Shown here: positions 1-62,092 of the stretch, piece by piece
How positions within the stretch are numbered: the first letter of the stretch is position 1
How the letters are laid out: each line of letters begins with the position of its first letter
Virus record (IMG/VR): IMGVR_UViG_3300042449_001328
Span: 1-64,000 of that record
Origin: a virus
DNA: 64,000 nt
Direction: 5' to 3' (one strand)
The notes under the pieces: model-generated
What the model was told of the DNA's origin: nothing
Database searches by the model: none
What the model saw: only the letters and a program-made list of their open reading frames with translations
Program-made: the position numbers and the translations under genes

Positions 1-187
1 TGCAGGAGAATTGTTGTATCAGTTCTGCGTCCTGATCATCTAGTATCAGATCAAAAGTTTCATCCAATATCCTATCGTCTTTTGCCTCAATAACACAATA
101 GTTATTGTCACCTATATTGAATACCTTGTTTGGTTTAAGCCAAGTGTGAGCAAGATTGTTATCTATTAGGTATTGCGAAATATTCAT
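1..187 (-). CDS. Start of hypothetical protein, runs off the window
   Basis: The first 62 codons of a minus-strand gene are visible, beginning MNISQYLIDNNLAHTW. Its ATG overlaps the TGA of the recombinase gene (ATGA), so the two are probably translationally coupled in one leftward operon. The fragment is acidic toward its end. I do not recognise a family and the rest lies outside the window. Confidence 0.6.
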   Translation of the reverse strand, partial: MNISQYLIDNNLAHTWLKPNKVFNIGDNNYCVIEAKDDRILDETFDLILDDQDAELIQQFSC

Positions 188-996
188 ATTGGCAATTGAA
201 CTTTGGATAATAATTTAGTGGATACATGTGTGTAAATTTCAGTGGTTTTTACATTACTATGCCCTGCTATCTTTTGTATCAACCTTAAATCAGTACCATT
301 TTCTAACAGGTGGGTAAATGAAGAATGCCTTAAATTATGGATACTGGTTTTTGTATCAATGTACTTTTTGTAAATCTGTTGACAGCTTCCTATTGAATAT
401 TTGGGTGAATTCTGGCCATTAAATAAAAATTCTACTGGTTTGTAATTTACAAAATAAAATCTAAGTAGCTTTAATACTGTTTCTGACAATGGAACTATTC
501 TATCCTTTCTACCTTTTGCATTGTTTATATGAATCAACATTCTTTTTGAATCAATATCGTTTATTTTTAAATTAACAATTTCTGACACCCTTAGCCCTAC
601 TGAATAAGCTAGGGTTAGTATCGTCTTATGTTTTAAATTTGGTATAATAGCTATCTTTCCTATTAAATCTTGTTGGTCTATTACCCTAGGCAACTTCTTT
701 TCGCCACGGGGTCTTTTTAGTTTATAAAATTTTTTAGGTTGAGATAATATCTTTTCATAATAAAACTTGATGCAATTAATGATCTGATTTTGTTTTGTTG
801 AAGACAATTCGCCATTGTCCAATAATTTATTCAAATAACCAACTATCTCATCATAAGAAATGTGCCTTACATTTTTATTTTCAAATGAGTTTACAAATTC
901 CTTAAAATAAGACAAATAAACTTTTATAGTGTTTTCTGAATAATTCATTCGTTGAAGTGTGGTAACATAATCTTCAAACAACTTTAAATTTTTCAT
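184..996 (-). CDS. Tyrosine recombinase (XerC/D- or integrase-like)
   Basis: This 270-residue protein should cut and rejoin DNA through a phosphotyrosine intermediate. Residues about 5-90 look like the SAM-like core-binding domain. The catalytic domain carries the full set: R136 (GLRVSE), K161 (AKGRKDR), H220 and R223 (HNLRH), H246 (GHSN) and Y255 (IYTH). The stretch between K161 and H220 is short and lacks the extra helix motif (about 16-20 residues) that defines integron integrases (IntI). Its start faces a cassette array of attC-like sites beginning about 180 bp away, which is the geometry of intI, attI and cassettes. It could instead be the ordinary phage integrase or a resolvase. Family assignment is firm; the role in cassette capture is inference. 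Confidence 0.9.
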   Translation of the reverse strand: MKNLKLFEDYVTTLQRMNYSENTIKVYLSYFKEFVNSFENKNVRHISYDEIVGYLNKLLDNGELSSTKQNQIINCIKFYYEKILSQPKKFYKLKRPRGEKKLPRVIDQQDLIGKIAIIPNLKHKTILTLAYSVGLRVSEIVNLKINDIDSKRMLIHINNAKGRKDRIVPLSETVLKLLRFYFVNYKPVEFLFNGQNSPKYSIGSCQQIYKKYIDTKTSIHNLRHSSFTHLLENGTDLRLIQKIAGHSNVKTTEIYTHVSTKLLSKVQLPI

Positions 997-1048
997 ATAG
1001 GATAGTGTTGGTAATCAATTAGTTAAATGGACATTGATATATATGATT

Positions 1049-1171
1049 GTTGGTGGCAATGCCGCCCCGCTCCAATGGTGCTTCGGGCATGGAAGCTATT
1101 CCTAGCACCGCCCACGCTTCGGGGCGGCACTGTTCGCGCCAACGCGCAAAGGCCGACCCAAGCCCACCAAC
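1049..1171. other. Complex GC-rich palindrome between recombinase and array (attI candidate)
   Basis: The outer arms are GTTGGTGGC (1049-1057) and GCCCACCAAC (1162-1171), complementary except for one extra base in the right arm. A perfect inner stem pairs GCCGCCCCG (1061-1069) with CGGGGCGGC (1120-1128), and further short complementary pieces lie in the loop. GC content is far above the AT-rich surroundings, suggesting a foreign origin. It sits where an integron would have attI or its first recombination site. Two ORFs through this block are artefacts of the palindrome. Function is inferred from position only. Confidence 0.5.
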
Positions 1172-1176
1172 ATGGG

Positions 1177-1851
1177 GTTTAAAACATAGGGCAACATTTA
1201 GCGCGTTTTTCATAGGTAGTTTCGTGGGAAGGTTTTAGAATTAATTGCCGCCCACGCGCGAGAAAGAGATAACCCAAACAAACGGGTTTTCATTCCATGA
1301 TTGTTGACCGTTGACTTTTTCCCATAACATTTGCCATGCAAGTTTAGGTGTACTGGATGTTGGTGAGCAAGCCCCTTCCTTGTAGCAATCAGCAATAGAA
1401 ATACCTTGCAGTTTTTCTGCGCTTATATCTTCAATCCTTAACTTTATTCGGCAAGCCTGTTTTGGCATAAAAATGCTTGGTTTCCATCTCCACTCTTCCA
1501 TAGTTTCCCAATCAGGGTCTGTGGCCCTGTAAACATATCCGTTATCTTCTCCAGCAAAATCAACGTATTGCCATGTTTCACGCACCCAAAGTATGTCTCC
1601 AATTTGTCCGTATGGGCATTGTGTTTTGATTGATTCCCACCACTTCGGGTTACTGGCGGTTTCCATCCATCCACGAAACGGTTCCTTTACTATCCTTCTT
1701 GTTTGTGTTTTGCTGCCATCTAAAATAGCCCTTACCATTGACCCAGAAAATAAAATTGGGTGTTCCTTTGCCCGCCCTTCGGCAATTAATTCTAAAACCT
1801 GTTCGTTTTCCATAGTTATTTTATCTGTTTAGTTGCCCTACGATTTTAAAC
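1177..1851. repeat. Inverted end boxes of cassette 1
   Basis: GTTTAAAA at 1177-1184 is complementary to TTTTAAAC at 1844-1851. The match extends outward (GGGG and CCCC) and inward (AGGGCAAC at 1188-1195 and GTTGCCCT at 1832-1839). These boxes bracket the ASCH-like gene and match the R'/R'' logic of an integron cassette. Confidence 0.7.
1241..1813 (-). CDS. ASCH-domain-like protein (cassette 1)
   Basis: The 190-residue product contains HPILFSGSMVRAILDGSKTQ, then TRR, and later CPYGQIGDILWVRETW. This is the typical opening of phage-borne ASCH/PUA-like proteins (PILFSxxMVRAILDGrKTqTRR, CPYGxpGDxLWVRETW). ASCH domains are predicted RNA- or nucleotide-binding modules; the substrate is unknown. 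The gene fills the first cassette of the array, bracketed by 8-bp complementary boxes, and has no obvious promoter inside the cassette. Expression probably depends on leftward phage transcription. Confidence 0.8.
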   Translation of the reverse strand: MENEQVLELIAEGRAKEHPILFSGSMVRAILDGSKTQTRRIVKEPFRGWMETASNPKWWESIKTQCPYGQIGDILWVRETWQYVDFAGEDNGYVYRATDPDWETMEEWRWKPSIFMPKQACRIKLRIEDISAEKLQGISIADCYKEGACSPTSSTPKLAWQMLWEKVNGQQSWNENPFVWVISFSRVGGN

Positions 1852-1868
1852 CCCTTATACATTATGCG
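1844..1868. other. Truncated attC-like junction between cassettes 1 and 2
   Basis: The right box of cassette 1 (TTTTAAAC, 1844-1851) is followed after 9 bp by the left box of cassette 2 (ATTATGCG, 1861-1868). The internal stem arms seen at the other junctions are missing, and the expected G before TTATGCG is an A. This looks like a deleted or fused recombination site. Confidence 0.5.
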
Positions 1869-2092
1869 TAATGCTCCGAATACTTCTGTTCAAGTTCAAG
1901 CATTTTATCCCATATCTCTTGGTGGTGGACACTATCCCAAGCACATAATCTTGGACTTTTCTTTTTCTCTTGCAAAAATGCTTTCAGTTCATTGTAACAA
2001 TTAGCACTACGCATAACATCGGCTATACGCAATTGCTCTTCGTATTTTTCAACGGTTTCTTTTGCTTTTAAGTAATCTTCTTTTTTTATCAT
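1862..2092 (-). CDS. Hypothetical cassette protein, 76 residues (cassette 2)
   Basis: A lysine- and glutamate-rich, probably helical protein beginning MIKKEDYLKAKETVEKYEEQ. The stop codon TAA lies within the left cassette box (TTATGCG). The first 26 codons overlap the attC-like site at 2010-2141. The right box CGCATAAC (2010-2017) encodes Val-Met-Arg and includes an in-frame ATG, so a shorter 50-residue product starting there is possible. I do not recognise the family. The upstream residues read like natural coding sequence, so I prefer the long start. Confidence 0.55.
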   Translation of the reverse strand: MIKKEDYLKAKETVEKYEEQLRIADVMRSANCYNELKAFLQEKKKSPRLCAWDSVHHQEIWDKMLELEQKYSEHYA

Positions 2093-2141
2093 TTTGTTTA
2101 ATTTTTAAGTTCGCAACTGCGTATAGCCGTAGCCGTTAGGC
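2010..2141. other. attC-like site C
   Basis: Boxes CGCATAAC (2010-2017) and GTTAGGC (2135-2141) enclose 17-nt arms at 2020-2036 and 2113-2129. The arms pair fully except one A-C on the plus strand, which is a G-T pair on the minus strand. Spacers are AT on the left and TAGCC on the right. The terminal loop holds the start of gene 1862-2092. CGCATAAC pairs with TTATGCG at 1862-1868, the other end of the same cassette. Confidence 0.75.
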
Positions 2142-2145
2142 ACAA

Positions 2146-2325
2146 TTAAACCCAACTCTTCCAATGTGTAGGTGTGTAATAAACATACATACTACCATCA
2201 GGCAACCACCAAAGTTTACCATCAAACTTTAATTCTTGTTCGTTCCTTGAACCGTTTTCATCTTCAATTTTGGTCATCATCACCCTATTTTTTGGTGGAT
2301 GCTCTTCTGAAATTTTTTTCCACAT
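2146..2325 (-). CDS. DUF551-like small protein (cassette 3)
   Basis: A 59-residue protein with MWKKISEEHPPKNRV near its start and VYYTPTHWKSW at its end. This resembles DUF551 proteins (W-x-x-I-S-E-x-x-P-P ... TPTHWxP), common in phages and of unknown function. I chose the ATG at 2325 rather than an upstream ATG at 2385, because the extra 20 codons are encoded by the attC-like palindrome. Cassette ends: GTTAGGCACA (2135-2144) pairs with TGTGCCTAAC (2338-2347). Confidence 0.65.
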   Translation of the reverse strand: MWKKISEEHPPKNRVMMTKIEDENGSRNEQELKFDGKLWWLPDGSMYVYYTPTHWKSWV

Positions 2326-2340
2326 AATAAAATTAACTGT

Positions 2341-2435
2341 GCCTAACAACGTATATAATGGATACGCCAATAAGCGGTTATACATTTATTTAAGTTTATC
2401 GGTGGCGTACCCATCATATACGCAACCGTTATAGG
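2341..2435. other. attC-like site D
   Basis: Boxes GCCTAAC (2341-2347) and GTTATAGG (2428-2435) enclose 20-nt arms at 2350-2369 and 2403-2422. The arms are complementary except for two A-C mismatches on the plus strand, which become G-T pairs on the minus strand. Spacers are AA and CAACC. This is the clearest full site in the array. Confidence 0.85.
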
Positions 2436-2457
2436 AAATTTTATTTTTCCCATCGCA

Positions 2458-2808
2458 CTACGAAAAGTGCGAGAAAATGAACAGATAAGGTTCTGCAATT
2501 GGTTCATCTTCTTTCAGCTCAAAAACTTCACGGTATTTTGATTTTACCTTTTCTGCGTCTAAATTTTTGAAATCCAAGTGGACAAAATCCCATCCTTCAT
2601 ATTTATCTCCACCGCTTTCAATCCGTATTCCAAATACGTTATATTGTCCACACATTCCATCGCTTACAAGTGTAAATTCTTCGCCTTGATGTCCTTCAAT
2701 CATTGGCAAAAATTTATCATCCGATAAATCAATTTTACCGTTTTCGTTTTTTAGTTCATAAGGTAATTTATACCCGTAAACAATGTAATCTGTTCTATCT
2801 ACTCCCAT
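2458..2808 (-). CDS. Hypothetical protein, 116 residues (cassette 4)
   Basis: An acidic protein starting MGVDRTDYIVYGYKLPYELK, without signal peptide or membrane segment. Its cassette ends pair: GTTATAGG (2428-2435) with CCTATAAC (2850-2857), and A/T-rich similarity continues inward. It starts 41 bp inside the right box and ends 22 bp from the left one, so the cassette is little more than the gene. I do not recognise the family. Confidence 0.7.
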   Translation of the reverse strand: MGVDRTDYIVYGYKLPYELKNENGKIDLSDDKFLPMIEGHQGEEFTLVSDGMCGQYNVFGIRIESGGDKYEGWDFVHLDFKNLDAEKVKSKYREVFELKEDEPIAEPYLFIFSHFS

Positions 2809-2849
2809 TTTTAAATTTGTTTAAGCCAACCCACAAAAAATAAAACTAT

Positions 2850-2947
2850 CCTATAACACGGGTTTGGCGTAATGCCACCAGATAGTTTGTGCCTAAATTT
2901 AAAGTTCGTGCAAGGTGGCACTAACGCCAAGCCCGAAATCGTTAGGC
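2850..2947. other. attC-like site E
   Basis: Boxes CCTATAAC (2850-2857) and GTTAGGC (2941-2947) enclose arms at 2859-2879 and 2914-2935. The arms pair over about 21 positions, with one unpaired extra A in the right arm, two wobble-type positions and a short spacer AAATC on the right. The single extrahelical base is a known attC feature, but it sits in the opposite arm from classical sites read in this direction. Confidence 0.8.
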
Positions 2948-2960
2948 ACAATAAAATTTG

Positions 2961-3185
2961 CTACCCAACGCACTCCCATTCAACATCAGGAAATTGTTCA
3001 GCAAATCTTTGTTTCTCCTCTGCCTGTCCCTGCTTTACTTCTTTCAATACCTGTTCTTTTGGTATTTCTAAACTTGGCTTATAATTGCTTATACAAAATG
3101 GGTTTCCAGCCCACAAGTTCCAATATTTACGCCCTTTCTTTAACCATGCGTAGTCAGCTATTTGTTCAAATCCTTTAAAATTCAT
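2961..3185 (-). CDS. Hypothetical protein, 74 residues (cassette 5)
   Basis: A small soluble protein starting MNFKGFEQIADYAWLKKGRK, with a Lys/Glu-rich second half. Ends GTTAGGCA (2941-2948) and TGCCTAAC (3204-3211) are complementary, and the similarity extends inward to AAATTTGC near both ends. The family is not recognised. The start is 20 bp inside the right box. Confidence 0.65.
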   Translation of the reverse strand: MNFKGFEQIADYAWLKKGRKYWNLWAGNPFCISNYKPSLEIPKEQVLKEVKQGQAEEKQRFAEQFPDVEWECVG

Positions 3186-3204
3186 AATCGCAAATTTTAC
3201 AGAT

Positions 3205-3297
3205 GCCTAACATGCGGTAAAAGTAAGCCGCAGAAAGGCTGTTACTAAATTTGAGCAGTCTACAAAGCGGCCTACTCTTACCGCCAACCGTTAGTGG
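3205..3297. other. attC-like site F
   Basis: Boxes GCCTAAC (3205-3211) and GTTAGTGG (3290-3297) enclose 18-nt arms at 3214-3231 and 3267-3284. The two departures from perfect pairing are A-C on the plus strand and G-T on the minus strand. Spacers are AT and CAACC, as in site D. Confidence 0.85.
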
Positions 3298-3302
3298 TAA
3301 TG

Positions 3303-3524
3303 CTATAAACACACACCATTAAATGTGTTCAAATAGTTTTTGAACTTTATATAAACATCAAGCATATCGTCAACATGTATTTGTTGCTTATCAAAAACTA
3401 TTTTAGCACTACCTGTATCTAACACAACATTTGGTGGTGTTACCGTAAAAGCACTACCACTAACAGCAAGTATATTCAATTGCTCACTTTCTTGGTTATT
3501 TTCAATTTTATCTTTCATACCCAC
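3303..3524 (-). CDS. Hypothetical protein, 73 residues (cassette 6)
   Basis: The product starts MGMKDKIENNQESEQLNILA and continues with a beta-rich stretch (VTPPNVVLDTGSAKIVF). The first 20 or so codons lie inside attC-like site G, where GTTAGTGG encodes Val-Ser-Gly. Cassette ends GTTAGTGGTAATGC (3290-3303) and GCACTACCACTAAC (3451-3464) are complementary at 13 of 14 positions. The family is not recognised and the true start is uncertain. Confidence 0.55.
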   Translation of the reverse strand: MGMKDKIENNQESEQLNILAVSGSAFTVTPPNVVLDTGSAKIVFDKQQIHVDDMLDVYIKFKNYLNTFNGVCL

Positions 3525-3591
3525 TCTTATTTGTTAATTAAACTTTTGTTTTTCAAAGTCGCAACTAATTATACTTGCAACTCGTTAGCAG
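3457..3591. other. attC-like site G
   Basis: Boxes CCACTAAC (3457-3464) and GTTAGCAG (3584-3591) enclose 18-nt arms at 3466-3483 and 3561-3578. The outer nine positions pair perfectly and the inner part is looser. The loop contains the start codon and leader of the cassette-6 gene. Confidence 0.7.
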
Positions 3592-3594
3592 CCA

Positions 3595-3846
3595 TTAAGG
3601 TAGCGTTTCCAATTCATCGTGACTAAATGTTAAACAAGCTATTGTCCCTTGCGGCACTTGTGGACAAAACTCACCCCACATATTCCATGCCTTGCCATCT
3701 TTTGCAACCACTTGACAAGCAATGAATCTATCATCAGGCAATCCTTCAAGTGCCTTTTTAAGAGTTCCAACCGTATGAAAATTAACGGCTGCTAACACAT
3801 TATTTGCGTCAGTGGGGGTTTCGTGCTTTTTAGAATCTGTCTGCAT
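3595..3846 (-). CDS. Hypothetical protein, 83 residues (cassette 7)
   Basis: The core TVGTLKKALEGLPDDRFIAC resembles short phage proteins with a 'xVxeLkeaLxxLPdD' opening, of unknown role. The first 20 or so residues (MQTDSKKHETPTDANNVLA) are encoded within attC-like site H. Cassette ends GTTAGCAGCCATTAA (3584-3598) and TTAACGGCTGCTAAC (3782-3796) pair at 14 of 15 positions. This is a clear example of a gene whose start sits in the loop of its own recombination site. Confidence 0.65.
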   Translation of the reverse strand: MQTDSKKHETPTDANNVLAAVNFHTVGTLKKALEGLPDDRFIACQVVAKDGKAWNMWGEFCPQVPQGTIACLTFSHDELETLP

Positions 3847-3923
3847 AATTTAAAAATTTGTACTGTTAATAATCTTTGGTGGTGTAACGCCCCACCGAAC
3901 GCAAATAATCGTAACGTTACCTG
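3789..3923. other. attC-like site H
   Basis: Boxes CTGCTAAC (3789-3796) and GTTACCTG (3916-3923) enclose arms at 3799-3817 and 3890-3909. The arms pair over 19 positions with one wobble-type position and one extra A in the right arm. The loop of about 70 nt carries the start of gene 3595-3846. Confidence 0.8.
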
Positions 3924-3929
3924 CAAGTG

Positions 3930-4142
3930 CTACATTTCGGTTTCAAATAAACTTGGTGCAGAAAAACTTTTATTAAAATTTCCCACTCTCTTATTTATAA
4001 TTTCAAAATACTTTTCGTCAATCTCATAACTCACAGTATCAAAACCTAATTCATTTGCAACTTTGCTTGTCGTTCCGCTTCCTCCAAACGGGTCAATAAT
4101 TGTTTCGCCTTCCTTTGCAGTTATCTGTATAAGATGGGTGTT
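3930..4142 (-). pseudogene. C-terminal remnant of a DNA methyltransferase
   Basis: Read on the minus strand, the open frame gives THLIQITAKEGETIIDPFGG, then SGTTSKVANELGF and YEIDEKYFEIINKRV, ending in TAG at 3930. DPFGGSGTT is the SAM-binding motif of the D12/beta-class N4/N6 DNA methylases, which carry it near the C-terminus after a conserved (T/K)xLIxxL helix. The catalytic N-terminal part is absent and a TGA at 4143-4145 closes the frame. It follows left box GTTACCTG (3916) but has no matching right box, so a deletion probably removed most of the gene and its site. Confidence 0.75.
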
Positions 4143-4239
4143 TCAAACGCCCCCGCGCTGGTTTAATTTTAAAAAAGTTTTAGTTTGTATTTCATATTTA
4201 AGTTTGTGCTATGCCTGTTTCAGCAGCTACACTTGATAC

Positions 4240-4248
4240 ATTAGTGGC
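4240..4248. other. Cassette left box with altered first base
   Basis: ATTAGTGGC here is complementary, apart from its first base, to GCCACTAAC at 4436-4444. It marks the left end of the 52-residue cassette. As at 1861, A replaces the G expected before TTAG, and no stem arms precede it. The following GCAAGTGCTACAT also follows the box at 3917. Confidence 0.55.
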
Positions 4249-4253
4249 AAGTG

Positions 4254-4412
4254 CTACATATTGCTATCCAAAAGTTTTATGCTTCTGTATATCGGTATAA
4301 ATAAAAGCCAATAGGTTGTTACAAGATGTACCTCTAAATGAGATTTATCTTTAAAACCAGCATCAAAACTTTTCACATACATTTTTCTTTTGTGTTCTGT
4401 TCTTTTTATCAT
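4254..4412 (-). CDS. Small hypothetical protein, 52 residues (cassette 9)
   Basis: An intact short frame from ATG at 4412 to TAG at 4254. It starts MIKRTEHKRKMYVKSFDAGF and has a hydrophobic middle (TTYWLLFIPIY) that could be a short membrane-associated segment. It is bracketed by TTAGTGGC (4241-4248) and GCCACTAAC (4436-4444) with further pairing (GTGC and GCAC). The strongly basic N-terminus and cassette context support a real gene. Function unknown. Confidence 0.55.
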   Translation of the reverse strand: MIKRTEHKRKMYVKSFDAGFKDKSHLEVHLVTTYWLLFIPIYRSIKLLDSNM

Positions 4413-4436
4413 TTTCGTTTAATTTAACCGCACCAG

Positions 4437-4572
4437 CCACTAACATTGCATTGCAAAAAGCAGGGCTGACGTAATGCTTTCAACAATGGGAATACTATTA
4501 AACTTCACCTATAACGCATTGGGCAGACGTATTCCAATTCCCCTGCCTTCTGCAATGCTTTGCCGTTAGCGG
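4437..4572. other. attC-like site I
   Basis: Boxes CCACTAAC (4437-4444) and GTTAGCGG (4565-4572) enclose 18-nt arms at 4448-4465 and 4541-4558. The arms are complementary except for two positions that are A-C on plus and G-T on minus. The loop is about 75 nt with no gene start. Confidence 0.8.
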
Positions 4573-4577
4573 CAACC

Positions 4578-4793
4578 CTAAACGACCGCAGTAAACGTGG
4601 TTAAAGATTTACGAACGGTTACTTCTTCGCCTTTTTCGACTTCATTGTAAGCAAGAATAGCTTTTGCCTTTCCTTTGGTAATTATACCACTTGCCCAAGT
4701 TTCATCTTGATGGGTAAGTTGCATTCTAAATTTCCCTTTTCGTTGAGATACTACATCGTAAATCTTTCCAACTTCTAAATTTTGATTTTCCAT
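4578..4793 (-). CDS. Hypothetical protein, 71 residues (cassette 10)
   Basis: A small beta-rich basic protein, MENQNLEVGKIYDVVSQRKG onward, with a VGKIYDV-type opening seen in small SH3-like or OB-like phage proteins; this is only a resemblance. Its cassette ends GTTAGCGGC (4565-4573) and GCCGCTAAC (4820-4828) are complementary, with CCCT and AGGG pairing a little further in. Confidence 0.65.
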   Translation of the reverse strand: MENQNLEVGKIYDVVSQRKGKFRMQLTHQDETWASGIITKGKAKAILAYNEVEKGEEVTVRKSLTTFTAVV

Positions 4794-4819
4794 TTTATTT
4801 TGATTTGTGAAGAAGGGCA

Positions 4820-4860
4820 GCCGCTAACAACGTGCTTGTGCCATTTAAAAATGCGTCAAA
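4820..4860. other. Eroded attC-like site J
   Basis: GCCGCTAAC (4820-4828) closes cassette 10 and is followed by AACGTGCTTGTGCC, similar to the start of site D (AACG) and of site K. I could not find a convincing complementary right arm or a GTTRRRY box before the next gene, so only half of a site remains. Confidence 0.45.
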
Positions 4861-4899
4861 GTTCAGTGCCTTTAATCAAGTTCGGTGAGCAAAATAAAT

Positions 4900-5289
4900 T
4901 TAAACAACCCCACCGCACTCCTTCGTAGAAAGTTCGTGTTGCAATTGAAAGTACACGTCAAAGAGTAATTCAATTTCCTTTGCCCGTTCGACAATTTTTC
5001 CTTGTATAATCTCACGGAACTTGTCATAGTTTTCAGGCTCTATTTTATTATGCCAAGAGTGTTTCCATGTGTCCATATCAATTACTATTTTGATAAGTTC
5101 TTTTAAGGGGTCATCACCAAAACAATTTGGTTTCTCCCACCTTAATTCAAACCCGTCTTTGATAATGTACTCTTTGTCTCCTGAAAACGGTCTTACAATT
5201 TCGTAACGTTTCGCAGTCCCTTCAATTGTTGTACCTCTAAGGCCAACACCAATTTTACTAAGTTGGTTGATAAATTCTAAATGATCCAT
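4900..5289 (-). CDS. Hypothetical protein, 129 residues (cassette 11)
   Basis: A soluble acidic protein starting MDHLEFINQLSKIGVGLRGT, with a mixed alpha/beta look (RYEIVRPFSGDKEYIIKDGF) and a helical C-terminal third. It follows the array pattern: minus strand, small, closed on the right by GCTGCTAAC at 5394. Its left boundary box is not recognisable. The family is not recognised. Confidence 0.65.
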   Translation of the reverse strand: MDHLEFINQLSKIGVGLRGTTIEGTAKRYEIVRPFSGDKEYIIKDGFELRWEKPNCFGDDPLKELIKIVIDMDTWKHSWHNKIEPENYDKFREIIQGKIVERAKEIELLFDVYFQLQHELSTKECGGVV

Positions 5290-5393
5290 CGCTCAAGTTG
5301 TTTAAATTTATTTTGTTTAGTATTTCAAATTAATATCGTGACACACAATCCAAAGCCTTGCTATCCGTGCCTAGTTTCGGGTTGGGTGCGCCA

Positions 5394-5420
5394 GCTGCTA
5401 ACAACGTGTTTGCCTCATGG
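5394..5420. other. Eroded attC-like site K
   Basis: GCTGCTAAC (5394-5402) is followed by AACGTGTTTGCC, nearly the same sequence as follows the box at 4820. No complementary right arm or matching left box was found. The rest of the 5290-5608 gap holds nothing else I can support except a 23-codon frame at 5507-5578. Confidence 0.4.
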
Positions 5421-5506
5421 CTGAAAGTGCTATTTGATATTTTTGTTTTCATCTATAAAATTTATCTGTTCAAAAATCTATCCGTTACCCACCGCATTAG
5501 AAACTA

Positions 5507-5578
5507 CTAACTCATTTCCGGTGTGCTTCGTTTCTTTTTCCACTTGGCGGTATCATGTCTATTTTGCGCTTTACTCAT
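5507..5578 (-). CDS. Very short possible gene or gene remnant, 23 residues
   Basis: ATG at 5578 to TAG at 5507 encodes MSKAQNRHDTAKWKKKRSTP and three more residues. It is very basic. It lies between an eroded site and the next gene and may be a real small peptide or the start of a truncated cassette gene. The evidence is only an intact frame with an A/T-rich leader. Confidence 0.25.
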   Translation of the reverse strand: MSKAQNRHDTAKWKKKRSTPEMS

Positions 5579-5608
5579 CTCTATTTATTTAGTTCGTGTT
5601 CGGCCATT

Positions 5609-5863
5609 TTACTGACACATATTTGCGGCTACATTAGTTGTAATTCTACTCAACACCATTCTGTTTAAGATACTCATTGAACATACCTTTCTTTTAAGTC
5701 CTTCAATCATATAATCTTCTAACTGCTTGTTAAGTTGAGAAGAAAGCCTACCTATAACATCCGCTATAAGAATATTTGTTCTTTCTGCATTCATTGGTTG
5801 TAATTTAAAGTTAAGTAGTTCTAAATCCGCGTAATTGAAAAAGCGTCTGAGTTCGTATTTCAT
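5609..5863 (-). CDS. Hypothetical protein, 84 residues
   Basis: Starts MKYELRRFFNYADLELLNFK and contains a helical middle (IADVIGRLSSQLNKQLEDYM). It is basic overall and of unrecognised family. It follows the 58-residue frame upstream after 3 bp, suggesting co-expression. The last residues (TTNVAANMCQ) may come from an old recombination junction. Confidence 0.5.
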   Translation of the reverse strand: MKYELRRFFNYADLELLNFKLQPMNAERTNILIADVIGRLSSQLNKQLEDYMIEGLKRKVCSMSILNRMVLSRITTNVAANMCQ

Positions 5864-5866
5864 AAG

Positions 5867-6043
5867 TCAGTCCATATAGGTGTAGCCACAAAATTGTAAT
5901 CTCAATCGTTTACTTTTACAAAATGAGAATCGCCAGTCATTTTCATCAAAGCCGTAAAGGTCTCCTCTGTAAAGAATAAACTCGCATAGCCACTTTCCAT
6001 CTTGGTTACTACAACAAAGGAATTTTGTGTATAAGTGTTTCAT
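5867..6043 (-). CDS. Hypothetical protein, 58 residues
   Basis: An intact frame from ATG at 6043 to TGA at 5867, starting MKHLYTKFLCCSNQDGKWLC and containing GDLYGFDENDWRFSFCKSKR. It has five cysteines in a short chain. It overlaps the end of gene 6009-6224 by 35 bp and is followed 3 bp later by gene 5609-5863. Family unknown. Confidence 0.5.
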   Translation of the reverse strand: MKHLYTKFLCCSNQDGKWLCEFILYRGDLYGFDENDWRFSFCKSKRLRLQFCGYTYMD

Positions 6044-6224
6044 AATTTCGTTTACATTTGTTAGTGGCAGTTAACTCACCGCCAACATTGTGTTTGAGTA
6101 ATTTTCGTTCACGTTCCAAAACAACAGCTTCATCAAGTAATGAAACTATATATCTAACATCAATCATTGATACTTCGCCAATTTCTCCAGCTATCAATAT
6201 TTGTTCTTTAGTATATTTTTTCAT
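6009..6224 (-). CDS. Hypothetical protein coupled to primase, with array junction in its 3' end
   Basis: A 71-residue protein, MKKYTKEQILIAGEIGEVSM onward, whose ATG overlaps the primase stop (ATGA), so it belongs to the replication operon. Its last third spans a GTTAGTGGC box at 6060-6068 that looks like a cassette end. The C-terminal residues are therefore probably not original, and this is the right-hand limit of the array. Helical, family unknown. Confidence 0.6.
   Translation of the reverse strand: MKKYTKEQILIAGEIGEVSMIDVRYIVSLLDEAVVLERERKLLKHNVGGELTATNKCKRNYETLIHKIPLL
6060..6086. other. Rightmost cassette-type box
   Basis: GTTAGTGGC (6060-6068) matches the box type used throughout the array. 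A short imperfect palindrome follows (GGCAGTTAACTCACCGCC, 6066-6083). No partner box to its right was found, so it may be the fossil outer edge of the array. Confidence 0.35.
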
Positions 6225-46730: not shown

Positions 46731-49085
46731 CTACACTATGTTTAAATCGCTCACAAACGACTTTAAAAGCTCATTGTTCTCTTTGAAGAATTGATCTATC
46801 AATGGCTTTATTTTGCTGTTAAATACCTCTTTAGATACATGATTATCATCTTTGTGGTATGGAACACCAACGCTTTTATATTTTACAACATCTTCGCCTT
46901 CAACATTGACCGCATGATACTGCTCCAAAGCTCTGGCAAAACATTCACAAGTTCTGTTCACATAATCGCTATCTGTCTTTTTGTTCAAATTATTTCTGAA
47001 TGTATTGGCTATTTTCCCAGCAAGTGAATTAAAATCATCTGACGCATAATGTCTGTTTTTTGAATTACCCAATTGATTGTCTAAGAAGTGAGCAAATTCA
47101 TGAGCTAAAGTGAACCCAAACTTGCCATTTTCTTTATTGTCGCTTACACCGATTGCTTTCATTGATGGGTAATATAAACCTAAAGCATTTCTGGCGTGCA
47201 TCATTTTATCCCCACTGTGGCTTATCTTTAGGCCAAACTTTTTCGATATTGATGACCTGTCCCCAAATGATTTGTAAACTTCGTTCAATGAATTTTTTAT
47301 CTGCTCAATTTGCTGCTCTTTTATTTCTTTTCCGTTTTGCAATTTCACTTTCACTCCATGACTGTCAAGTAAAGTGTTTTTTGTCCCAGAGTCACCGTAA
47401 CTGGTCTCCCTGCCTTTATCAAAACTAGTGTTGTTCTCTTCTCTCTGTATACGTAAATCTTTTTTCCTCCACTGCAATTGATCTCTAACCTCTTTATACT
47501 CAATGACACAAGGATCATCGTAACTGTACGATCTTTTGCCCATATCAAAAGGGGTTTTGTAATCCTTGTTTACAAATTTTTTATACATGTCAAAATTAGA
47601 TTTCAACATACTGTTTTCATCTAATTGGCTTATCCTTTTGCCAGTAGGCAATTGGACAGGGGAATTTTTCATGTCTGGTATCTCTGCTATCTTTGCCTCT
47701 TTTGGCAAACCCTCCCATTGTTCCTTAGTGTATTTTTTCTTCTGTTTTTCAGAAAGCCTTTTATCATAATCAAATGGATAATACATTTTTATTTTTTCAT
47801 CACTCCATTCTGCTACTCTGGCCAGTATTTTCTTTGTTTCGTTTTCTTTCTTTTTGGCAATGATCGCTTTTGCAGTTTTTTGATAATAGTCTTGCATTGC
47901 TACCATTTGGTCTATCTGAACAACTGCATATTCTGATATATGGTTGTTCAATAATGCTCTATTATCTTCTTCCCATTTATTTTTATCAGAGTATTCATAT
48001 TTTTTGCCAGATATTTCTATTGCGTATCCATCTTTTTCATTGCCCCACACATTTGTTGGTGAATCTAACTCCAAGTAGCTGTACTTGCCATCAAGTATAT
48101 CCCTTTTCAACTGTTCGTTGTTCAGCTTATAAGAAGATGCTGTTTTATTATATCCATTTGTGGCCAACAAATAGGTATCATCACTTAATTTCACATAATC
48201 AAAAACAAAATTGTCCAACTTCCTTCCTGCAAAAACTGCAAGGTTTATATCTGGACACCAATTTGGTTTAGGCTTATCCAAAATACCTTCTTGTTCCACA
48301 AGCTGTATGTCCATTTGACTAATCAAGGTATAATCCAAGGCTTGTATTTTTTCACCCGATCTGGTTGTAAATTCCTTTACCTCAATATTGCTTTTTTGCT
48401 CTCCCTGTTTCTCTATGGTGTTGCTTACTGGAAGTTCACCGCTCTCTTTGCCAAACAGTTCTTTAACTGCCTTAAACCTGTTGCTTTCAGTAACATTGTT
48501 AATTATTTCAGAAGAATTTTCAACTGGAGGTATGCTTATCTCGCTTTCTGGCACTAGGGTATTGTTAACTTCATAACCTGCTTTATTATCAATAATTGAT
48601 ACACCACTTACCTCAAGTTCTTTTCCGTCAACCGTGACGTTAGTACTAACATCAACTAAATTCTTTAATTCTTTTGCTTGTTCTTTCTGTACAGTCTCTT
48701 GATATGTTTCTTCTGGCATTTTTGAAATCAAATTGGACATGATTTCTTCTTTTGCATTTAACGGGAAAATCCAACCCCCAAGGGTCTTGTTCCAACTACC
48801 TATACCAACATCTGATTTTATTTTTCTCAGCAATTCTAAATTAGCATAAGTGTTGCCTGTTATAAGCAAAGATTTATCTGAATATCTTGTAATTTTTAAA
48901 TCTAGTTTTGTATCCAGGGATTCGCCTAGTGGTAAATTTTCTTCTATCTTATCAGTACCTACCTCTCGGTACTGATAAAATGTTTTACCGCCCCTCTGTA
49001 CTTTTATGTATTCGTACCTTTTGCCTTTTTGGATAGTGTCTAAAACAGACTGTTCAAAAAAAAACCGTCTTCTGACTTTTTTATT
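46731..49085 (-). CDS. LPD/zincin polyvalent protein, probably made by -1 frameshift
   Basis: The frame is open from just after a TAA at 49086-49088 to the stop at 46731, about 780 codons. It has no ATG in its first 100 codons. An isolated TTG at 48869 is the only alternative nearby. The gene upstream overlaps its beginning in the 0 frame. Content: a KRYEYIKVQRGGKTFYQYRE segment, a small domain LITGNTYANLELLRKIKSDV...GWIFP, then LAHEFAHFLDNQLGNSKNRH and ECFARALEQY. The last two are the HExxH and second-helix signature of LPD1-type domains of polyvalent proteins, which are associated with injected phage effectors. Confidence 0.7.
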   Translation of the reverse strand, partial: NKKVRRRFFFEQSVLDTIQKGKRYEYIKVQRGGKTFYQYREVGTDKIEENLPLGESLDTKLDLKITRYSDKSLLITGNTYANLELLRKIKSDVGIGSWNKTLGGWIFPLNAKEEIMSNLISKMPEETYQETVQKEQAKELKNLVDVSTNVTVDGKELEVSGVSIIDNKAGYEVNNTLVPESEISIPPVENSSEIINNVTESNRFKAVKELFGKESGELPVSNTIEKQGEQKSNIEVKEFTTRSGEKIQALDYTLISQMDIQLVEQEGILDKPKPNWCPDINLAVFAGRKLDNFVFDYVKLSDDTYLLATNGYNKTASSYKLNNEQLKRDILDGKYSYLELDSPTNVWGNEKDGYAIEISGKKYEYSDKNKWEEDNRALLNNHISEYAVVQIDQMVAMQDYYQKTAKAIIAKKKENETKKILARVAEWSDEKIKMYYPFDYDKRLSEKQKKKYTKEQWEGLPKEAKIAEIPDMKNSPVQLPTGKRISQLDENSMLKSNFDMYKKFVNKDYKTPFDMGKRSYSYDDPCVIEYKEVRDQLQWRKKDLRIQREENNTSFDKGRETSYGDSGTKNTLLDSHGVKVKLQNGKEIKEQQIEQIKNSLNEVYKSFGDRSSISKKFGLKISHSGDKMMHARNALGLYYPSMKAIGVSDNKENGKFGFTLAHEFAHFLDNQLGNSKNRHYASDDFNSLAGKIANTFRNNLNKKTDSDYVNRTCECFARALEQYHAVNVEGEDVVKYKSVGVPYHKDDNHVSKEVFNSKIKPLIDQFFKENNELLKSFVSDLNIV

Positions 49086-51436
49086 TTAGTCTTTGCTTGT
49101 TCTGCTTTCCTAATCTCTATTTCCCTTTTTGCTGCATTACTTAATGTAGGATCTGAATGTGATTTCATTTTCATCAAAATATCATTTGACGTCCTACCAG
49201 CGTGTTCAGCTAGTTTTTCAGGTGAATGTTGGAATTTTCCCTTGCTGTTAGCTTTTTGTTGATCGTTATTTTCAGATTTAGAGATTAAAGTTTTTTTCTT
49301 TAACCTACTCTCCCACAAAATTTTACCGTCAGGGGTTAAGACATTATCATTTTTTACAAACTCTAGGCCATGTTGTTTTTCTGCTAATTCATAAAGCAAT
49401 GAACCTATTCCTTGACCCCTATGATTTGGATCTACTTGTACAGTTGTAGCTATTAAATTCGGTTTGAATTTGTTTTTTATATAAGTCATGTCTCCCACAT
49501 GATTGTTACCTTTTTTAGCAATAATTTTATATTCATTGTCATCCAAATGCTTTATATGAAATGAAGCATTTTCTCCATTTTTAAGTTTTTTTTCATAAAT
49601 AGGGTAACCTAAGTTTGTGTGACCTACAACAATTCCACCCCTATCCCCCTCAGCTTTTTCGAGATCGTTACTCTCACCCTTCTCAATTCCAAAATACTCT
49701 TTTAAGTGTTCTTTAGTGTCTTTAAATAAATCCGCTGCCATCCACTCGTTTACTGACATAAACTTTAATTGAGTAGCTTCGTTTTCTAAATCAATGTTAG
49801 CTAGAGGTGAAGTGCCTAAGTCTTGATAGAAATTTATGCAGTAACCGTTTAATGTTTGACCTGTTGGCAATTGCTTAGTGTAGCATGGAACTAGATAAGA
49901 GGATTTGTCAATGTCTAGATTTGTTTCTTCTTTGAATTCCCTGAATGCTGCTTCGTCTGGTCTTTCATCTCCGTCCACATGACCTCCAGGCAGCATCCAT
50001 TGTCCGTTATCTTCTCTTTTCATTAAAAGCAACTTTCCTTCGTGGTCTGTGTAGATAATTGCTACATAGTCTCCTTCGGCTTTTTTTAGCTCGTTGCTTA
50101 ATTCTTTCTTTTGCTTTTTAGCCTCTTTCTTTTGCTTTTCATCGTCATCCTCTTCTAGTATTTTTACTAGGTTCTTATGCTCTTCGATGAATTCATCTTT
50201 TGGGATTTCAACTTTTTCAGACTTTTTTATTTCACCTGAGATATGTTTTTTTACCGTATCTACTATTTGTTGTATAGAATCTCCTTCTTTAACATCTATA
50301 TTTATAAACTCAACATTTGGGTGTTCTTTTTTTATTTCTTCAAACGAAGTCTTATTTCTCCTATAATCTGAATTATTAAAATCGCCTACAGTAACATTGA
50401 TTATCTTTTTCAACCCATCATCTTCAATGTCTGAATTAAAGTTGCTCCAATCAGGTGTATGGTCTTTCACCCTTATTCCTATATCTCCAAACCTAGCATA
50501 GCCTTGATTCCCTAACGGGAAACCTAATGAGGCTTGTATGTCAAATTCAGCTTTAACTTGATTTTTTTCATCTAAATCGTAATCTTTGAATTTATGACCC
50601 GATAAAGCTGATTTAAAAGTAGTATGCCCTCTTACTCCACTTCCAATCCCTCCCTTACTCAACTCTATCTCCACAGCTAGTTGATATACTCTTTCGGCTG
50701 ATTCTAGGTCTAGGTTGTGAGATTTTTGGAGGTCGATTAGGATGTCGGCTTTAGAAACTTCCTCTTTTTCAACTTGAGTTTTATGGTAATTTTCACTCAT
50801 TCTATGAGCAGATTCATTAATGCTTGAATCTTTTATTTTACCATCACTGCGAGTACCATGTTTTTTATAAGAATCTGTTAATATTTTATTATGAGCATTT
50901 TGAGCATCTATATGGTCTTGTTTTGAAAAACTCGCATAATGATCCAAAACTTTTGATTTTGTTCCAGGTTTTAAATGAGATTCATAAATCGGTTTATTTG
51001 ATTGCGTAGTCCCTATAACTTTTCCGCCTTTAGAACCAACGCCGCCTTTCTCAATTAGCTCCTCTAACTCCTTCTCAGCTTTTTCTATCCCTTCGTGAAA
51101 CTTAGCTACCTTATTGATAAACTTATCTTCGTTCTTAGATCTCTTTTCTTGAAGGATTTGTTTTGTGGCTTGGATTTCTTCGTTGCCTTCTGATTTAACT
51201 AGGGCTTGATCGCAGGCTTGAATTTTAGATTCAAATTCCTGATCTATTTCATCGAAGTTTTCGATTGCTTTTTGCAAGTCCTCTTTGCCTAACTCAATTA
51301 CCTCCTCCAATGCCTCTGCTTTGCGTAGTTCTATTTGATCGGCAGTAAGATTGTTGCCTTGTTCATCTTGGATAACAACTCCGGGGATTTCTTTGATAGT
51401 GCCAAAAGCATTACGGATAGTTGAAAATAAATTCAT
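49040..51436 (-). CDS. Polyvalent protein with Nudix and GNAT domains
   Basis: The 798-residue product begins with a coiled coil (about 30-130). A KGGVGSKGG module (near 130) and KGGIGSGVRGH (near 262) follow. Then comes a Nudix hydrolase with the box GHVDGDERPDEAAFREFKEE (about 480-505), a KAEGDRGGIVVGHTNLGYPI motif, and a GNAT acetyltransferase with VDPNHRGQGIGSLLYELAEK (about 670). The tail is Lys-rich. A dnaX-type slippery heptamer A AAA AAG (49076-49082) and T9 (49056-49064) precede its stop at 49040. Multi-enzyme fusions of this type are thought to be packaged and injected to counter host defences; that role is inference. Confidence 0.75.
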   Translation of the reverse strand: MNLFSTIRNAFGTIKEIPGVVIQDEQGNNLTADQIELRKAEALEEVIELGKEDLQKAIENFDEIDQEFESKIQACDQALVKSEGNEEIQATKQILQEKRSKNEDKFINKVAKFHEGIEKAEKELEELIEKGGVGSKGGKVIGTTQSNKPIYESHLKPGTKSKVLDHYASFSKQDHIDAQNAHNKILTDSYKKHGTRSDGKIKDSSINESAHRMSENYHKTQVEKEEVSKADILIDLQKSHNLDLESAERVYQLAVEIELSKGGIGSGVRGHTTFKSALSGHKFKDYDLDEKNQVKAEFDIQASLGFPLGNQGYARFGDIGIRVKDHTPDWSNFNSDIEDDGLKKIINVTVGDFNNSDYRRNKTSFEEIKKEHPNVEFINIDVKEGDSIQQIVDTVKKHISGEIKKSEKVEIPKDEFIEEHKNLVKILEEDDDEKQKKEAKKQKKELSNELKKAEGDYVAIIYTDHEGKLLLMKREDNGQWMLPGGHVDGDERPDEAAFREFKEETNLDIDKSSYLVPCYTKQLPTGQTLNGYCINFYQDLGTSPLANIDLENEATQLKFMSVNEWMAADLFKDTKEHLKEYFGIEKGESNDLEKAEGDRGGIVVGHTNLGYPIYEKKLKNGENASFHIKHLDDNEYKIIAKKGNNHVGDMTYIKNKFKPNLIATTVQVDPNHRGQGIGSLLYELAEKQHGLEFVKNDNVLTPDGKILWESRLKKKTLISKSENNDQQKANSKGKFQHSPEKLAEHAGRTSNDILMKMKSHSDPTLSNAAKREIEIRKAEQAKTKIKKSEDGFFLNSLF
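49056..49082 (-). promoter_or_regulatory. Probable -1 ribosomal frameshift signal
   Basis: In the 0 frame ATA AAA AAG contains A AAA AAG, the classic -1 slippery heptamer. Twelve bases further on, GG is followed by nine T residues. A -1 shift at either place leaves the 0 frame before its TAG (49040-49042) and enters the 780-codon frame downstream. The -1 frame is closed by TAA just before this window (49086-49088). A four-base stem GTCT/AGAC lies just after the T-run. Confidence 0.65.
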
Positions 51437-60878: not shown

Positions 60879-60885
60879 ATTTTTG

Positions 60886-61300
60886 TGGACCTGAGCGGAT
60901 TCGAACCGCTGTCCAGATAGCATACAATACCACGATTACTTACAGCTTGTTTGGTTTAAGTCCAACAACTCACTTTTAGGGCTACCAGCAGTTTTTCAAC
61001 TACCTACAACCTCCACCATTCGATTGCCATTACTTCTTTTGTGTCATATCGAAAATCCCCTTTGTTTTACTCATTAAGCAGCAAGCTCTAATTCTTGCTC
61101 TGCTTCAACTCTATTAAAGTTAAAGGCTGAGAAATCAAAACCTACTTTTGCATCTTGACGATTGCCAATAGTACCACCTAGGATACTGTTAGCGATTAAT
61201 TGATTGTCAATTGTTTGTGTATGCATATTTTCAGTAGGTACAGCATACTTCCCTACGCTGATTGTGTTACCAATTACTACTGTCAATTCCTGTCAGGCCC
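60886..61300 (-). ncRNA. ssrA: Phage-encoded tmRNA (SsrA)
   Basis: The 5' strand GGGCCTG (61294-61300) pairs with the 3' strand CAGGTCC (60887-60893; one G-T), and GAATTGACAG follows the 5' strand. The 3' half has CTGGAC, the T-arm AGCGG-TTCGAAT-CCGCT and discriminator A. An internal frame ends GCAGAGCAAGAATTAGAGCT, then TGCTGCTTAA, giving a tag ending AEQELELAA, with the LAA end expected for ClpX recognition. The ssrA RNA would rescue stalled ribosomes and tag their products. No CCA is encoded. A promoter-type box lies 46 bp upstream. Confidence 0.85.
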
Positions 61301-62019: not shown

Positions 62020-62092
62020 ATCCGATGGACGGGTTCGAACCGACAACCTTCTGCTTACAAGGCAGTAGCTCTTCCACATGAGCTTCATCGGA
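62020..62092 (-). tRNA. tRNA-Thr (anticodon TGT)
   Basis: Acceptor TCCGATG / CATCGGA, D-arm GCTC-ATGTGGAA-GAGC, anticodon arm with loop CTTGTAA giving TGT, and T-arm with TTCGAAC loop. The outermost anticodon pair and one T-stem pair are mismatched. It reads ACA codons. No CCA is encoded. It lies 9 bp after a terminator. Confidence 0.88.

What the first reader, a model, noticed from the sequence alone, without database searches (positions are those of the whole stretch)
1000..6086. Integron-like gene-cassette array inside a phage
Seen: at least seven well-formed imperfect palindromes (C to I) of integron attC type separate small single-gene units. For cassettes 1-7, 9 and 10 the box on one side of the gene is the complement of the box on the other side, while boxes of neighbouring cassettes differ. 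Examples: GTTATAGG 2428 with CCTATAAC 2850; GTTAGCAGCC 3584 with GGCTGCTAAC 3787; GTTAGCGGC 4565 with GCCGCTAAC 4820. Established: this pairing arises because a cassette circle carries one attC that is cut between its box halves. Inference: the phage has gained these genes by integron-type recombination. Arrays in virulent or temperate phage genomes are rare as far as I know.
Basis: partly seen in the sequence, partly recalled or inferred. Interest (0 to 1): 0.95.

Follow-up and report, generated by a model that had tools for sequence, protein, structure and literature searches.

The report
Phage-borne integron with stripped-down integrase
A bacterial virus carries its own gene-collecting machine, an integron-like array run by a short integrase that lacks the part integron integrases were thought to need, and cultivated relatives are seen gaining genes at exactly its insertion point.

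Summary
Seven hairpin sites (2008-4574) score far above shuffles and occur nowhere else in the 64 kb window, and neighbouring boxes pair across most genes. The window is a tailed phage. The array starts at an attI-like site (about 1036-1056) beside a 270-aa integrase (184-996, -). That integrase is not IntI: the IntI-specific I2 region is missing. About 80 viral loci with this integrase and enough upstream DNA have the same array; one does not. In 324 phage cassettes the boxes pair at >=9 nt in 65% (1.7% by chance).

Direct evidence of activity comes from relatives. Metagenomic phages with identical integrase DNA differ by whole cassettes at attI. In cultivated Polaribacter phage Freya, the entire 43,978-nt Freya_1 genome is 100% identical to Freya_10; isolates differ by cassette DNA (307-902 bp steps) inserted at attI.

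Three things are unusual: no I2; fixed G.T pairs instead of the one-sided extrahelical bases seen in all 36 IntI sites checked; phage ORFs inverted relative to attC (278 of 289). Related chromosomal arrays exist in Bacteroidota.

Phage integrons are already reported (Qi 2023); this I2-less, self-contained type was not found in the papers searched. New variant of a known kind.

The parts
184..996 (-). Tyrosine recombinase, 270 aa, catalytic R136 K161 H220 R223 H246 Y255; lacks the IntI-specific I2 region
   Evidence: PF00589 + PF13495; NF040815 186.6 bits; TIGR02249 161.6 bits (cut-off 265), split with the I2 region missing
1036..1056 (+). attI-like site GATATATATGATT|GTTGGTGG beside the integrase start
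   Evidence: motif YAAC followed within a few bases by TATATA-like sequence, within 90 nt upstream of the ATG in 87 of 92 phage loci (mostly 36-54 nt) versus 1.35% of random windows; window example read from sequence
1164..1870 (+). attC-like site 1 with a long loop: R'' CCACCAAC 1164-1171, stem 1174-1195 / 1832-1854, R' TTATGCGTA 1862-1870
   Evidence: Direct reading; similar long-loop sites in relatives
1241..1813 (-). ORF of 190 aa (PHROG 874, unknown function) inside the loop of site 1
2008..2144 (+). attC-like site 2
   Evidence: z -3.55
2338..2437 (+). attC-like site 3
   Evidence: z -1.73
2848..2950 (+). attC-like site 4
   Evidence: z -3.58
3202..3299 (+). attC-like site 5
   Evidence: z -3.16
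3455..3593 (+). attC-like site 6 (weak fold)
   Evidence: z -1.08
3787..3925 (+). attC-like site 7
   Evidence: z -1.77
4435..4574 (+). attC-like site 8
   Evidence: z -3.14
1862..2092 (-). cassette ORF, 76 aa; 5' end lies in the loop of site 2
   Evidence: 52% identity over 42 aa to a stretch of phage array locus L156
2146..2385 (-). cassette ORF, 79 aa
2458..2808 (-). cassette ORF, 116 aa
2961..3185 (-). cassette ORF, 74 aa
3303..3524 (-). cassette ORF, 73 aa; start inside site 6
3595..3846 (-). cassette ORF, 83 aa (PHROG 35443); start inside site 7
4578..4793 (-). cassette ORF, 71 aa, between paired boxes 4565 and 4820
4820..4833 (+). orphan R'' box and left arm without a right arm (decayed site)

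Best explanation
The locus is a complete integron-like gene-capture system belonging to the phage. A short XerA-like tyrosine recombinase that lacks the IntI I2 helix (184-996) joins circular, usually one-gene cassettes to an attI site in its own leader (about 1036-1056). It recombines them through hairpin attC-like sites at the G|TT (complement YAA|C) core, so new cassettes enter next to the integrase and older ones are pushed away or excised. Shown: the anatomy; paired boxes; stem covariation; cassette gain at attI and internal cassette presence/absence in relatives, including cultivated ones; a site type that differs between I2-less and I2-bearing integrases. Inferred: that this integrase is the catalyst; that the reacting form is the folded single (bottom = coding) strand, with fixed G.T pairs in place of extrahelical bases for strand choice; that cassettes are read leftwards by phage transcription; and that the cargo is accessory, including anti-restriction, genes.
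For: Seven sites only here. 324 phage cassettes pair at >=9 nt in 65% versus 1.7% shuffled. About 80 phage-clade integrases with enough upstream DNA have an array upstream; only L193 (7.9 kb upstream) lacks one. attI motif in 87/92; first-cassette box near the integrase in 82/85. Phages with identical integrase DNA have different first cassettes cut exactly at attI: L016 carries an extra cassette that L018 lacks, between identical flanks. Freya_1 is 100.000% identical over 43,978 nt to Freya_10; F1 to F2 +842, F2 to F5 +902, F5 to F6 +472 and F9 to F10 +307 bp, all at AAC|ACCCCTATAACAAC (attI); F8 lacks 902 bp of F10 at an internal box. Cassette footprints start at the outer end of one site and stop at YAAC of the next. 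Stem positions 1-7 are 98-100% Watson-Crick with several pair types (5/2 register), with fixed G.T at position 13 (90%). One-sided extrahelical bases in 36/36 IntI sites versus G.T in 95% of phage sites. Phage integrases form one clade.
Against: No recombination was measured. The window's own array has no near-identical relative with a different cassette content. The window integrase is only about 36% identical to Freya's, so activity is carried over from relatives (the metagenomic ones are 45-63% identical). Three of seven window sites fold only slightly better than shuffles and the far end is decayed. Danklef has only a short integrase annotation yet its isolates still differ by a cassette, so a recombinase in trans can act or the break is recent.
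Confidence: 0.88

Rival explanations
1. The sites are ordinary integron attCs recombined in trans by a host IntI; the neighbouring integrase only serves lysogenic integration.
For: True IntI is over its cut-off in 70 of 248 sampled Bacteroidota genomes. Qi et al. 2023 (PMC9892861) showed that one P12002L attC is recombined by IntI1, and P12002L carries sites of this geometry. Danklef varies with only a short integrase annotation.
Against: The integrase is tied to the array in about 80 loci, with attI 36-54 nt from its start codon in most. Sites lack the one-sided extrahelical bases of Bacteroidota IntI sites. None of 8 genomes (7 Bacteroidota) with a short integrase has IntI over the cut-off.
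Confidence: 0.07
2. Same system, but recombination uses double-stranded sites in the Xer/dif manner; the hairpins serve another role such as termination or regulation.
For: Best sequence family and best PDB sequence hit are XerA-like recombinases. I2 has been called necessary for cassette capture and single-strand recombination (PMC7790495).
Against: Stem pairing is kept by changes on both sides with G.T at constant positions and constant polarity across 242 sites, which double-stranded recognition would not require.
Confidence: 0.15
3. The arrays are products of ordinary phage mosaicism with terminator hairpins between small genes.
For: Phage accessory regions are rich in small unknown genes, and ORFs share one direction.
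Against: Exact box complementarity across genes, gains at attI with no other change in the Freya genome, and the attI motif.
Confidence: 0.02

Closest known systems
Integron (IntI/attI/attC), chromosomal or mobile
   Same: Integrase start codon next to attI and array; cassette = one gene plus one hairpin site; R'/R'' boxes paired across the gene; entry at attI; YAAC/GTTR core; site polarity away from the integrase
   Different: Integrase lacks I2; sites have G.T wobbles instead of one-sided extrahelical bases; 10-nt paired boxes; ORF inverted relative to attC in phages
Phage integrons and CALINs of Qi et al. 2023 (PMC9892861)
   Same: attC arrays in phages; P12002L shows the same geometry and ORF direction in our scan
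   Different: Their complete integrons are bacterial types (Vibrio, Shewanella, class 1); CALINs have no integrase; the I2-less system with its own attI is not described in the parts read
XerA/XerC/XerD recombinases
   Same: Catalytic core, length and absence of I2
   Different: XerC/D fall in a separate clade; here linked to cassette arrays and attI, not to dif
Chromosomal short-integrase arrays of Bacteroidota found here (Flavobacterium, Arundinibacter and others)
   Same: Neighbouring integrase clade, same G.T-type sites, same box pairing
   Different: Array lies downstream of the integrase stop; ORFs run with attC polarity (60 of 65); cassettes larger (median gap 806 versus 310 bp)

Membership tests
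Integron | IntI-type integrase with the I2 helix / additional domain | tested here: not met
   TIGR02249 161.6 versus cut-off 265 bits, split; the IntI insert is absent in the alignment
Integron | attI site beside the integrase, where the first cassette begins | tested here: met
Integron | attC sites that fold into hairpins with RYYYAAC/GTTRRRY boxes | tested here: met
Integron | One-sided extrahelical bases in attC | tested here: not met
   36/36 IntI sites versus no consistent one-sided bulge here; G.T pairs instead
Integron | Cassette boxes paired across the gene | tested here: met
Integron | Cassette gain or loss at the core junction | tested here: met
   In relatives, not in the window itself
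Integron | Cassette ORF reads towards its attC | tested here: not met
   Phage 11 of 289; canonical Bacteroidota IntI arrays 22 of 22
Integron | Integrase recombines folded single-stranded attC | not testable with these tools
   Needs an assay
XerC/XerD/XerA | Equivalog score over the curated cut-off | tested here: not met
   NF040815 186.6 < 220; TIGR02225 153.9 < 329.6
Tailed phage | Structural genes in the same contig | tested here: met
   Major head protein, head maturation protease, baseplate wedge

The most novel reading that the evidence does not exclude
I2-less integrases carry out integron-type cassette capture on hairpin sites without extrahelical bases, using G.T/A.C asymmetry to choose the strand. 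They would be a second, independent or pre-I2 kind of integron, and phages hold a private pool of inverted cassettes that turns over on the scale of one bloom.
Probability: 0.45. Interest if true: 0.95.

Novelty: new variant of a known kind. Interest (0 to 1): 0.9.

Why it matters
I2 is held to be what allowed integron integrases to recombine folded single-stranded sites (PMC7790495). Natural integrases without I2 that sit beside cassette arrays with signs of recent activity make that claim directly testable. The site structure differs in step with the integrase type, which offers a natural comparison. Phages would have a dedicated system for trading accessory genes, including DNA methyltransferases, and a cultivated phage-host pair (Freya with Polaribacter sp. 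HaHaR_3_91) is available.

Tried and rejected
Rfam has no hit in the array, so my own detector was used; no covariance model was built because loop lengths vary widely. A relaxed blastn of cassettes gave spurious 59-65% alignments and was discarded for a strict run. A primase-based search found one relative (L285) with neither integrase nor array. Ingeline (about 40% identity to the Freya integrase) showed no clear array. A promoter role for attC (Bacteroidetes TAnnTTTG) was considered from the site profile, but the conserved TATA does not fit that consensus in general, so it is not claimed. Terminase PHROG 2 was found in 15 of 35 viral records other than the window's own; I do not read its absence elsewhere as non-viral.

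Full report
WHAT IS THERE. The window is 1-64000 of an 89,689-base IMG/VR record. It is a tailed phage: major head protein, head maturation protease and baseplate wedge, DnaB-like helicase and primase. At its left end lies a 270-aa tyrosine recombinase (184-996, -), and directly in front of its start codon an array of small minus-strand genes separated by hairpin sites. A detector requiring YAAC, arm, complementary arm and GTTR finds seven sites, all at 2008-4574 and none elsewhere in 64 kb; shuffles give none at the real scores. Folding is clearly better than shuffles for four and weakly for three. Beyond 4574 the array is decayed: the 4820 and 5394 boxes have no right arm. An eighth site (1164-1870) has a 20-bp stem that encloses a whole gene, PHROG 874. 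Sites with gene-sized loops (184-774 nt) occur in relatives too.

THE FAMILY. Searches with the integrase returned well over a hundred viral loci. About 80 phage-clade integrases with enough upstream DNA have an array upstream, the nearest site 141-1906 nt away; only L193, with 7.9 kb upstream, does not. In 324 unique phage cassettes the R' box and the next R'' match for >=9 nt in 65%, versus 1.7% after shuffling partners. Matching runs to at most 10 nt, longer than the classical 7-nt core.

attI. In 82 of 85 loci the complement of the first cassette's box lies between the last site and the integrase. In most it is followed by an A/T-rich motif (YAAC-TANTATATA) mostly 36-54 nt upstream of the ATG: 87 of 92 loci against 1.35% of random windows. 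In the window this is GATATATATGATT|GTTGGTGG at 1036-1056.

DIRECT EVIDENCE OF RECOMBINATION. L015/L017, L016 and L018 have identical integrase DNA but different DNA up to exactly attI. L016 1-118 equals L018 2494-2611; in L018 it abuts attI, in L016 one extra cassette (169-aa ORF, its own site) lies between. L013 and L014 behave alike. The best case is cultivated: ten Polaribacter phage Freya records from one host (PMC8776804). All 43,978 nt of Freya_1 match Freya_10 with no mismatch; the difference is array DNA. F1 to F2 +842, F2 to F5 +902, F5 to F6 +472 and F9 to F10 +307 bp, each at ...AAC|ACCCCTATAACAACAATAAG in front of the integrase; F8 lacks an internal 902-bp unit that F10 has. The paper reads the integrase as a sign of a possible temperate lifestyle, and its main text never uses the word integron. 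Danklef isolates differ by a 781-bp cassette with an adenine methylase, at a box.

THE INTEGRASE IS NOT IntI. TIGR02249 scores 161.6 (cut-off 265) in two stretches with the I2 region missing; the alignment shows the IntI insert (KDL...ALxRKYPNA...WQYVFP) absent from phage and bacterial short integrases. The AlphaFold model (pLDDT 87) matches VchIntIA and XerA about equally well. In the trees IntI and Xer are separate clades; phage short integrases form one clade (SH-aLRT 100, together with two contigs binned in MAGs), next to bacterial short integrases. Freya, Leef and Ingeline group with the phage clade with weak support. Whether I2 was never present or was lost is not decided.

SITE TYPE FOLLOWS INTEGRASE TYPE. 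In Bacteroidota arrays with true IntI, 36 of 36 sites have one-sided extra bases and 6% have a G.T. In phage short-integrase arrays 95% have G.T, and in the chromosomal ones 83%, without consistent bulges. Across 242 phage sites the outer stem is nearly always Watson-Crick with several pair types, and G.T sits at fixed positions, G on the R'' arm of the coding strand; the other strand reads A.C. This fits selection on a folded single strand and gives a means of strand choice (inference).

INVERTED CARGO. Site polarity (about 2-nt spacer at R'', 5-nt at R') points away from the integrase, as in canonical Bacteroidota integrons. Cassette footprints confirm that polarity: in the informative pairs homology begins at the outer end of the site on the ORF's 5' side and stops at YAAC of the next site. 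Yet the longest ORF is opposite to polarity in 278 of 289 phage cassettes, against 60 of 65 with polarity in chromosomal short-integrase arrays and 22 of 22 in IntI arrays. So phage cassettes carry attC in front of the gene and look like a separate pool. The likely reason (inference) is that the array lies in a unit transcribed towards the integrase.

CARGO. 273 cassette proteins fall into 225 clusters. Few are recognisable: DNA methyltransferases, RNA ligase, exonuclease, acetyltransferases, Lar restriction alleviation. This fits accessory and anti-restriction roles (inference).

BACTERIAL COUSINS. Related integrases (mostly 40-51%) in Flavobacterium, Arundinibacter and others, and in MAGs labelled Nitrospirae or archaea, have arrays downstream of the integrase stop, with an attI-like hairpin often 35-130 nt after the stop.

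LITERATURE. Qi et al. 2023 report three complete integrons, one integrase without cassettes and 17 CALINs in 10,705 phage genomes; P12002L has sites of the present geometry. Eight paper searches found no description of I2-less integrases with cassette arrays, but only open-licence papers were searchable. As far as I know, standard integron finders require the IntI-specific domain and would not call these complete integrons (own knowledge).

VERDICT. Real, active in relatives, widespread, and a new variant of the integron. Untested: enzymology and single-strand use.

Noticed in passing
L012:6882-7451, L012:19173-19463, L013:649-1098, L016:312-821, L018:1016-1567, L168:8672-9100, L181:6415-7266: Several otherwise different cassette proteins share an N-terminal peptide like MKDLKQFIKTTIREFLNE. 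It recalls T4 capsid-targeting leaders with an LxE cleavage site (own knowledge); possibly cassette products packaged in the head. The motif is in 6 of 273 cassette ORFs scanned, plus those in L016 and L018.
   Followed up: partly
L300-L304 (Polaribacter phage Danklef 1-5): Only a short integrase CDS is annotated and the match covers residues 96-271, yet isolates still differ by a cassette carrying an adenine methylase.
   Followed up: partly
L071-L150: Chromosomal arrays in Bacteroidota with the integrase flipped relative to the array, larger cassettes and ORFs in the usual direction; a few in MAGs labelled Nitrospirae, Micrarchaeota or Altarchaeum.
   Followed up: partly
phage loci, e.g. L004:2869, L007:8496, L029: A minimal 44-nt site with a near-constant core (ATCGTTTTAATGT) recurs in many unrelated arrays (28 of the first 216 sites have this length).
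   Followed up: no
L004:5264-5572, L178:1556-2329, window 1164-1870: Sites whose loops are gene-sized; in the window a whole gene sits in the loop.
   Followed up: partly
L285: Relative of the window phage (primase 53%) with neither integrase nor array near its primase: possibly the empty state.
   Followed up: partly
window 60883-61300 and 62020-62092: tmRNA and tRNA genes in the phage.
   Followed up: no
window 49040-51436: 798-aa protein with NUDIX and acetyltransferase domains; the NUDIX part also hits a PHROG labelled portal protein.
   Followed up: no
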